Source: Lachnospiraceae bacterium (lineage in GTDB: Bacteria > Bacillota > Clostridia > Lachnospirales > Lachnospiraceae). From it: a DNA stretch of 43,223 bases. The notes beneath the pieces were generated by a model. It was given only the letters and a program-made list of their open reading frames with translations, did no database searches and was not told the origin of the DNA. How positions within the stretch are numbered: position 1 is the first letter of the stretch; each line of letters starts with the position of its first letter. The stretch is from NCBI GenBank assembly GCA_024680595.1, contig JAILCB010000042.1, forward strand, positions 1-43,223, given 5' to 3'. Positions 8,586 to 30,274 of this stretch are shown here, in pieces. Both the position numbers and the translations under genes were made by a program.

Positions 8586-8706
8586 TCCCGTCTCCTTATT
8601 ATAGGTGAAAGATTGACTCCCTCATGGGCATTTTCCCCTTCGCGGGGGCCTGGTCCGGTACGTATTTTGCATGCCTTGCCCAATTCATATCCCGCCGGCC
8701 GGGGCC

Positions 8707-11308: not shown

Positions 11309-11546
11309 ATCCTCCTTACAATAAATACCGTTACTCTATGATAACTTCCTCCCTGCCACAAGATGGATAACCCTTTGAAAATAGTCTTTGCCGAGGACAA
11401 AGAACCGGGAACTGTCTGAGTCCGTTCATTGGGCTTTTTCACAAGGTATCCACGGGCATTTCATTGACCCATTCCTATTTTCTCTGTGAGAACCGGGTCA
11501 GGTTTGAATTCCGGCATCGTGATGAAATCCGGAATCCTTAGTTTTT

Positions 11547-11660
11547 CCGAATGCGAAAAGGAGACGCATTTGGAAATCCCGCACTTCGTGCGGACCAGCC
11601 CATCGCTTCGCATGGGCTGGTAGTGTTCGGATTACGAATTTCCGATGAAATTCGTAATCC
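11547..11660 (+). repeat. Structured interspersed element, copy A (4 hairpins); a related hairpin at 11506-11540 may belong to it
   Basis: Aligns to copies B and C; ends in perfect 14-bp stem GGATTACGAATTTC-cgat-GAAATTCGTAATCC. Confidence 0.85.
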
Positions 11661-11696
11661 TATGACTTTTACAATTTAGCAAAGTACAGTGATAAC

Positions 11697-11783: not shown

Positions 11784-11870
11784 ATAACAAGTGCGGTCCC
11801 ATATTGTAGTTATCGGCACAGATATTCAGGGCAGGAATCTATACGGGAATACAGTCTGTCCTATGGTATA

Positions 11871-11987
11871 GTATTGCGAATTTCATCGGAAATTCGTAAT
11901 ACGTACCCGACCGGGTCCCTGCGAAGCAGGGCGTGTGTCCCGCGCGGAGCGCGGGATTTCCGAATGCGGTTCCTTGTCGCTTTCGGA
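11871..11987 (-). repeat. Structured interspersed element, copy B
   Basis: Reverse complement shares ATTACGAATTTCCGATGAAATTCG (24 nt identical) with copy A and CCGCATTCGGAAATCCCGC with copy C. Confidence 0.85.
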
Positions 11988-12059
11988 AAGTCATACTGTG
12001 TGACAAATATGGATTTTTCCGGCTAGGAATTGATAAAGGCTCCTATCCCGGCGCACAAG

Positions 12060-30095: not shown

Positions 30096-30123
30096 TTGAA
30101 ACACGCCACATTTCGTGACTTTG

Positions 30124-30236
30124 TGAATGCAGCAGGGAACCGCATTCGGAAATCCCGCATTTTGTGTGGGACACGCCCATCACTTCGCGGGGGCTGGTCG
30201 TGTACTTATACCGAATTTCCGAAGAAATTCGGTATT
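30124..30236 (+). repeat. Structured interspersed element, copy C, in the 5' leader of the ABC operon
   Basis: GAATGC...GCATTCGGAAATCCCGC...ATACCGAATTTC-cgaa-GAAATTCGGTAT; aligns to copies A and B. Confidence 0.85.
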
Positions 30237-30274
30237 CTGTCCATTTCAAAAATGAGAGACTGGGGGAAGAGGCT

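What the first reader, a model, noticed from the sequence alone, without database searches (positions are those of the whole stretch)
11547..11660. Family of ~115-bp structured interspersed elements (copies A, B, C) with compensatory base changes
Seen: three copies (11547-11660 +, 11871-11987 -, 30124-30236 +) share hairpin 1 (CCGAATGCG/CGCATTCGG, loop with AGGA or AGGGA), GGAAATCCCGC linker, hairpin 2, hairpin 3 with CTTCGC loop, and a terminal palindrome. Terminal stem: A ATTACGAATTTC/GAAATTCGTAAT, C ATACCGAATTTC/GAAATTCGGTAT, so both arms changed together. Hairpin 2: A CCGCAC/GTGCGG, B CCCGCGC/GCGCGGG, C CCCGCAT/GTGTGGG. Inference: selection on RNA or ssDNA folding; possibly a REP-like or non-autonomous element, or a recurrent regulatory RNA.
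Basis: partly seen in the sequence, partly recalled or inferred. Interest (0 to 1): 0.75.

Follow-up and report, generated by a model that had tools for sequence, protein, structure and literature searches.

The report
Folded 125-base jumping repeats, no transposase
The three look-alike hairpin-rich stretches belong to a large, unnamed family of about 125-base mobile DNA elements that carry no gene, have jumped recently in relatives of this bacterium, and keep their folded shape while changing nearly all their letters, so an unknown enzyme that reads folded single-stranded DNA probably moves them.

Summary
Copies A, B and C belong to a family with 137 CM matches in this genome, present in 26 of 48 genomes of the genus and 3 of 249 genera sampled in the family. 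No Rfam family reaches threshold. The unit is GACTT-H1-H2-H3-GTC-nnn-TACG-H4-CTAT (115-129 nt, no ORF); its 5' GAC pairs with GTC (P1), closing a junction of three hairpins. Across lineages nearly every stem sequence is replaced while pairing is kept: 96% of cells paired, 277 double-changed cells against 85 shuffled, including the middle hairpins. Young, near-identical copies sit at unrelated loci. Four filled/empty comparisons show clean insertion right after (T/C)AT, with no terminal inverted repeats and no target duplication longer than the AT that target and element end share. A near-complete 4.2-Mb genome holds 14 copies and no autonomous version. TnpB and IS110 do not track the element; Y1 transposases are absent from 9 of 13 carriers tested. 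G-T and A-C mismatches are equally rare, pointing to DNA-level rather than one-strand RNA selection. Best reading: a non-autonomous element moved in trans by an unidentified enzyme that reads folded single-stranded DNA. It is not REP/RAYT, a MITE, or any Rfam RNA.

The parts
11541..11663 (+). Element copy A, GTTTT...CTAT, intergenic between an SBP_bac_3 gene and a thiamine-transporter-like gene
   Evidence: CM R1 hit 11538-11664, 120 bits; RNA fold z -7.8; Pfam of neighbours
11868..11992 (-). Element copy B, GACTT...CTAT, convergent with A (3' ends facing)
   Evidence: CM R1 hit 11867-11995, 149 bits; z -5.4
30117..30240 (+). Element copy C, GACTT...CTGT, upstream of a BPD_transp_1 ABC permease gene; 5' flank CGT and 3' end TGT both deviate from TAT
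   Evidence: CM R1 hit 30114-30241, 117 bits; z -2.7; Pfam
11479..11537 (+). 3' half of an older, decayed copy ending where A begins (tandem junction ...GGAATCCTTA|GTTTT)
   Evidence: nhmmer 24 bits, E 4e-6
8635..8673 (+). Fragment of a copy (H3, TGGTCCGGTACG)
   Evidence: nhmmer 17.8 bits, E 4e-4; sequence

Best explanation
The three copies belong to a family of ORF-less, non-autonomous mobile elements of about 125 bp. SHOWN: the family is dispersed and recently mobile, its unit runs from GACTT to CTAT, the net insertion lies immediately 3' of (T/C)AT without terminal inverted repeats, and the whole unit keeps five helices (P1 closing H1-H2-H3, then H4) through wholesale compensatory change. 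INFERRED: one DNA strand of the element becomes single-stranded, folds, and is recognised by shape plus short motifs (GACTT, loop GGAA, TACG before H4, loop YYGAT, CTAT) by an enzyme supplied in trans. The enzyme cuts 3' of YAT-like sites at both ends (flank YAT on the left, the element's own CTAT on the right) and pastes the folded strand after another YAT, as IS200/IS605 and REP transposases do. Because the element ends in CTAT, its own 3' end is a target, which explains the head-to-tail chains ...CTAT|GACTT.... The enzyme was not identified.
For: Copy number and spread. Near-identical young copies at different loci. Empty sites: L185 AAAG-CAT|GACTT..CTAT|GATAA versus AAAGCATGATAA in two species; L184 in two species; L182 and L183 in one each; L046 locus also consistent. 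Target consensus (not A)-Y-A-T|R in 39 young copies, element 3' end CTA(T). Same-element copies have 5' CAT or TAT but nearly always 3' CTAT. Structure: A1; A3, 28/36 pairs double-changed, 304 vs 82 cells; A4, aligned by sequence only, 96.2% vs 74.7% paired, 277 vs 85 cells. P1 changes register or sequence in other lineages (GAC:GTC to GCC:GGC; GG:CC). DNA-level selection: G-T 11 vs A-C 15 in A4 excluding the loop-closing pair, 26 vs 35 in A1. No autonomous copy in near-complete G050: 11 full and 3 partial matches, none an LE-ORF-RE arrangement.
Against: No mobilising enzyme found. Y1 transposases are missing from 9 of 13 carriers tested, although 3 of the 4 tested carriers at least 95% complete have one. 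The middle hairpins H2/H3 are as constrained as the ends, more than a standard IS200/IS605 end model needs. The cleavage site is only 4-5 nt from H1, too close for an IS608-type guide fold. A 2-bp AT core or duplication cannot be separated from no duplication. The G-T/A-C test mixes post-insertion decay with source-lineage evolution; its tRNA control is tiny and partly misregistered.
Confidence: 0.5

Rival explanations
1. RNA-level element: the transcript folds into a P1-closed junction RNA plus H4 and is bound by a protein, either for RNA-mediated (reverse-transcriptase) spread or as a mobile regulatory/insulator RNA.
For: All hairpins, including internal H2/H3 with UUCG-type loops, covary; stable RNA folds, z -5 to -9 in most copies; P1 closes a junction; several young copies lie 15-25 nt upstream of a start codon in sense.
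Against: G-U pairs only about 1% of cells in A4 outside the loop-closing pair, and no more frequent than A-C; no orientation or gene preference; 3'-truncated copies at least as common as 5'-truncated ones; no Rfam match.
Confidence: 0.25
2. Double-strand site-specific recombination with a 2-bp AT core (IS110-like, serine recombinase or bcr1-like): an excised circle with a CT-AT-GACTT junction recombines into Y-AT-R targets, leaving AT on both sides.
For: The youngest copies have AT at both junctions; empty sites have a single AT; 5'/3' dinucleotides match in 37 of 72 copies versus 30.4 expected, p=0.005, including GT/GT in window copy C; tandem junction equals the expected circle junction.
Against: IS110 over the cut-off is absent from most carriers including 98-99% complete G004 and G006; the non-AT-only match is not significant (3 vs 0.9, p=0.06); does not explain why a single-strand fold is under selection.
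Confidence: 0.2
3. TnpB/IscB-type guide-RNA (omegaRNA) elements without ORF, kept by the nuclease acting in trans.
For: ORF-less structured element with a fixed 5' target motif and flank-abutting 3' end.
Against: TnpB C-terminal domain (PF07282) absent from G004, G017-G020, G045, G056, G058, G209 and G199 although they carry the element; no HEARO/omegaRNA family hit.
Confidence: 0.03

Closest known systems
bcr1-bcr3 repeats of the Bacillus cereus group (PMC6542083, PMC3446304)
   Same: ORF-less repeats of 100-400 bp in tens to 130 copies, mobile, restricted to one group, proposed site-specific-recombination-like movement with a TTTAT motif
   Different: Other lineage; the original bcr1 papers and consensus were not held, so sequence or structure homology was not tested; this element ends in CTAT after a YAT target and keeps a P1-H1-H2-H3-H4 fold
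REP/REPIN elements with RAYT (TnpA-REP) (PMC8266576, PMC2817692)
   Same: Intergenic, structured, trans-mobilised; stems vary and compensate; hairpin preceded by a short conserved tetranucleotide; chains
   Different: REPs are single 20-40 nt palindromes tagged GTAG and linked to a RAYT gene flanked by REPs; here four hairpins plus P1, TACG/GAC motifs, no flanked transposase
CGTC-tagged REPs (PMC3733652)
   Same: Palindromic repeats that lack a dedicated transposase
   Different: Single short palindromes with a CGTC tag, not reported from Firmicutes there
IS200/IS605-derived non-autonomous elements
   Same: Subterminal hairpins, no terminal inverted repeats, no long duplication, insertion 3' of a short fixed target, end similar to target
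   Different: No autonomous partner with these ends; IS200/IS605 elements seen in the same genomes have different ends

Membership tests
REP/RAYT | GTAG tetranucleotide 5' of the palindrome | tested here: not met
   Conserved motifs are GAC 5' of H1 and TACG 5' of H4
REP/RAYT | Y1 transposase gene flanked by the repeats | tested here: not met
   No copy within the fetched flanks (up to 1.5 kb) of any Y1 gene found in 25 genus genomes
REP/RAYT | Cleavage at CT next to the hairpin | not testable with these tools
   Element ends in CTAT; biochemistry needed
IS200/IS605 non-autonomous element | Subterminal hairpins, no terminal inverted repeats, insertion 3' of a fixed short target without duplication | tested here: met
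   an AT core or duplication remains possible
IS200/IS605 non-autonomous element | Autonomous relative sharing the ends / Y1 gene in carriers | tested here: not met
   9 of 13 carriers lack Y1; no autonomous copy in G050. Incomplete assemblies limit this
MITE (DDE transposon) | Terminal inverted repeats | tested here: not met
   5' GACTT-stem1 and 3' stem4-CTAT are not complementary in relatives
MITE (DDE transposon) | Target-site duplication | tested here: inconclusive
   Nothing longer than 2 bp AT; AT cannot be assigned
Any Rfam 15 RNA family (incl. HEARO) | Score at or above gathering threshold | tested here: not met
   Window and 9 relative loci: 0 hits; sub-threshold scans show only chance-level hits
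TnpB-associated guide RNA | TnpB present in carriers | tested here: not met
IS110 (bridge RNA) | IS110 transposase present in carriers | tested here: not met
   Over cut-off only in G050, G209, G199 and weakly G020 among carriers
bcr1-bcr18 | Sequence/structure homology, TTTAT motif | not tested
   No bcr1 consensus available to me; no plasmid match by blastn

The most novel reading that the evidence does not exclude
A new class of bacterial mobile element in which the entire 125-nt single-stranded DNA fold (multi-helix junction plus terminal hairpin), not just its ends, is the substrate of an as yet unknown transposase or host enzyme, spreading in trans after YAT without target duplication.
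Probability: 0.3. Interest if true: 0.85.

Novelty: new variant of a known kind. Interest (0 to 1): 0.62.

Why it matters
It is a recently active, structure-defined mobile element with mapped ends, target, empty sites and dozens of lineages, so two open questions become testable: what moves the many bacterial structured repeats that lack a dedicated transposase (bcr1, CGTC REPs), and whether whole-fold recognition of single-stranded DNA or RNA can drive transposition.

Tried and rejected
Autonomous copy: searched by CM, by own-element BLAST in near-complete G050, and near the Y1 matches; none. IS605-type ends in G000 and G050 compared directly: different hairpins. TnpB and IS110 association: no. 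Phage/plasmid carriage: no match in IMG/VR patterns, plasmids or phages (108-111). GTDB r220 pattern scan gave 3 chance hits that the CM does not accept. H1-H4 kissing loop (ATCGG/CCGAT) holds in relatives but not in this genome, dropped. Outer ACACG:CGTGT helix in own copies: not conserved, replaced by P1. L268 second 3' end in G050 is a solo H4 hairpin after upp, not an autonomous element. L019 pair is a tandem gene duplication. The organism's name could not be settled with these tools.

Full report
1. What is there. The window is contig C164 of a 3.2-Mb, 318-contig, 85% complete assembly. Copies A, B and C are present as described. BLAST with A finds 44 matches, and a covariance model from 24 copies finds 137 at E<=0.01. 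Copies range from about 80% identical and intact to heavily decayed. Many are chained head to tail with the junction ...GGAATCCTAT|GACTTTCCG.

2. Anatomy. Consensus: (Y)AT | GACTT - H1 (loop with GGAA) - H2 - CACGCC - H3 - TGGTC - nnn - TACG - H4 (loop YYGAT) - CTAT. RNA folding of relatives suggested that the 5' GAC pairs with the GTC of TGGTC (P1), closing a junction around H1-H3. The pair holds in 27-29 of 30 lineages and changes to GCC:GGC in another genus (G199) and to GG:CC in L056, L050 and L250.

3. Structure is under selection. Own copies: 11 pairs and 36 cells with changes on both sides versus 5.7 and 14.2 shuffled. Relatives in the genus keep the architecture with almost every stem replaced. 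Own plus relatives: 304 double-changed cells versus 82, 93% paired (this alignment was fitted to the model). In an alignment of 30 sequences, nearly all relatives, made by sequence alone, with helices derived from the own-genome copies and redrawn on L231: 96.2% paired versus 74.7%, 277 versus 85 cells, 32 of 41 pairs, all five helices; partners slid by 1-3 columns give at most 54% paired. R-scape itself was not available.

4. It moves. Near-identical copies sit at unrelated loci in G004, G006, G019, G045 and G050. Related genomes hold the unoccupied site: L185 in G057 and G042, L184 in G057 and G042, L182 in G042, L183 in G045, and the L046 locus in G042/G057/G045. The net insertion is GACTT...CTAT directly after YAT. 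Over 39 young copies the left flank is (not A)-Y-A-T and the next base after the element is a purine in 34. Within one lineage the left flank can be CAT or TAT but the right end stays CTAT, so no 3-bp duplication. A 2-bp AT core or duplication cannot be separated, because target and element end share AT. Dinucleotide matching over 72 copies is weakly above chance overall (p=0.005) and not significant for non-AT alone (p=0.06).

5. Distribution. 26 of 48 genus genomes; 3 other genera among 249 sampled in the family; 0 of 16 genomes from other families of the order (with the own-genome-tuned model). No match in plasmids, phages or IMG/VR. Copy number within the genus is patchy, 0 to over 70 under strict filters.

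6. What moves it. G050 is nearly complete (3 contigs). It has 11 full and 3 clear partial BLAST matches and no arrangement of left end, ORF and right end, so the enzyme acts in trans or has been lost. Y1 transposases: 9 of 13 carriers have none and G013 has five without any element, but of the four tested carriers at least 95% complete three (G004, G006, G019) have one, so Y1 is not excluded. No Y1 locus is flanked by the element, and the IS200/IS605 ends inspected differ. TnpB and IS110 do not track it.

7. DNA or RNA. If one strand's RNA were selected, G-U should be tolerated and A-C should not. Outside the loop-closing pair of H1, relatives show 11 G-T versus 15 A-C cells and own copies 26 versus 35. 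G-U is about 1% of cells in relatives. A tiny tRNA control, partly misregistered, shows more G-U. This favours selection on DNA (single-stranded or extruded), but decay after insertion also produces symmetric mismatches, so it is suggestive only.

8. Known relatives. Rfam: none. REP/RAYT features are not met: GTAG tag, single short palindrome, flanked RAYT (definitions from PMC8266576 and PMC2817692). CGTC REPs also lack a dedicated transposase (PMC3733652). bcr1-bcr3 of B. cereus look most alike in habit: 100-400 bp, up to 130 copies, TTTAT motif, recombination-like movement (PMC6542083); homology not tested. HEARO was considered from my own knowledge and not matched.

9. Verdict. A genuine, apparently undescribed family of structured non-autonomous mobile elements. 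That it is mobile and fold-constrained is well supported; how it moves is inferred, and the mobilising enzyme is missing.

Noticed in passing
L056 upstream (G004:C6), L173 (G018), L174 (G015), L067 (G007): A second structured repeat family (TTTTGTACCTTGCCGCAGGCAAG..CATCGGTGACGTGCC..GGCACCGATG..TTTGAAA..TTTCAAA), seen directly upstream of start codons (apparently of argB and rpsQ) and next to insertion points of the present element.
   Followed up: partly
G199: L249, L252, L255, L257, L259, L329, L330: Most copies in genome G199 sit exactly at the ends of another repeat with terminal inverted repeats (TAGTGGGTGTTCCANAAAT|YAT); whether this is target preference or joint movement is open.
   Followed up: partly
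L017 639-813, L003 4365-4600, L018 6393-6566, L031 2875-3048, L028 2865-3070: Composite copies repeat the H2 module with unique spacers of about 30 nt in place of H3/H4/H1; L003 repeats the same spacer twice. Spacer origin unknown.
   Followed up: partly
L268 345-385 (G050): A solo H4 hairpin flanked by CTATA right after upp, identical to the 3' end of the nearby full element.
   Followed up: partly
L044 (G004:C24): Head-to-head pair joined as GGAAACC-TATA-GGTTTCC, making a long perfect palindrome.
   Followed up: no
L020 114-452 (own genome C192): Four tandem short units of about 88 bp lacking H4, joined at GGATTCCGA.
   Followed up: no
G006 and G045 (L182-L189, L334-L336): Identical element sequence at different loci in two species, suggesting recent transfer or very recent shared activity.
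   Followed up: no
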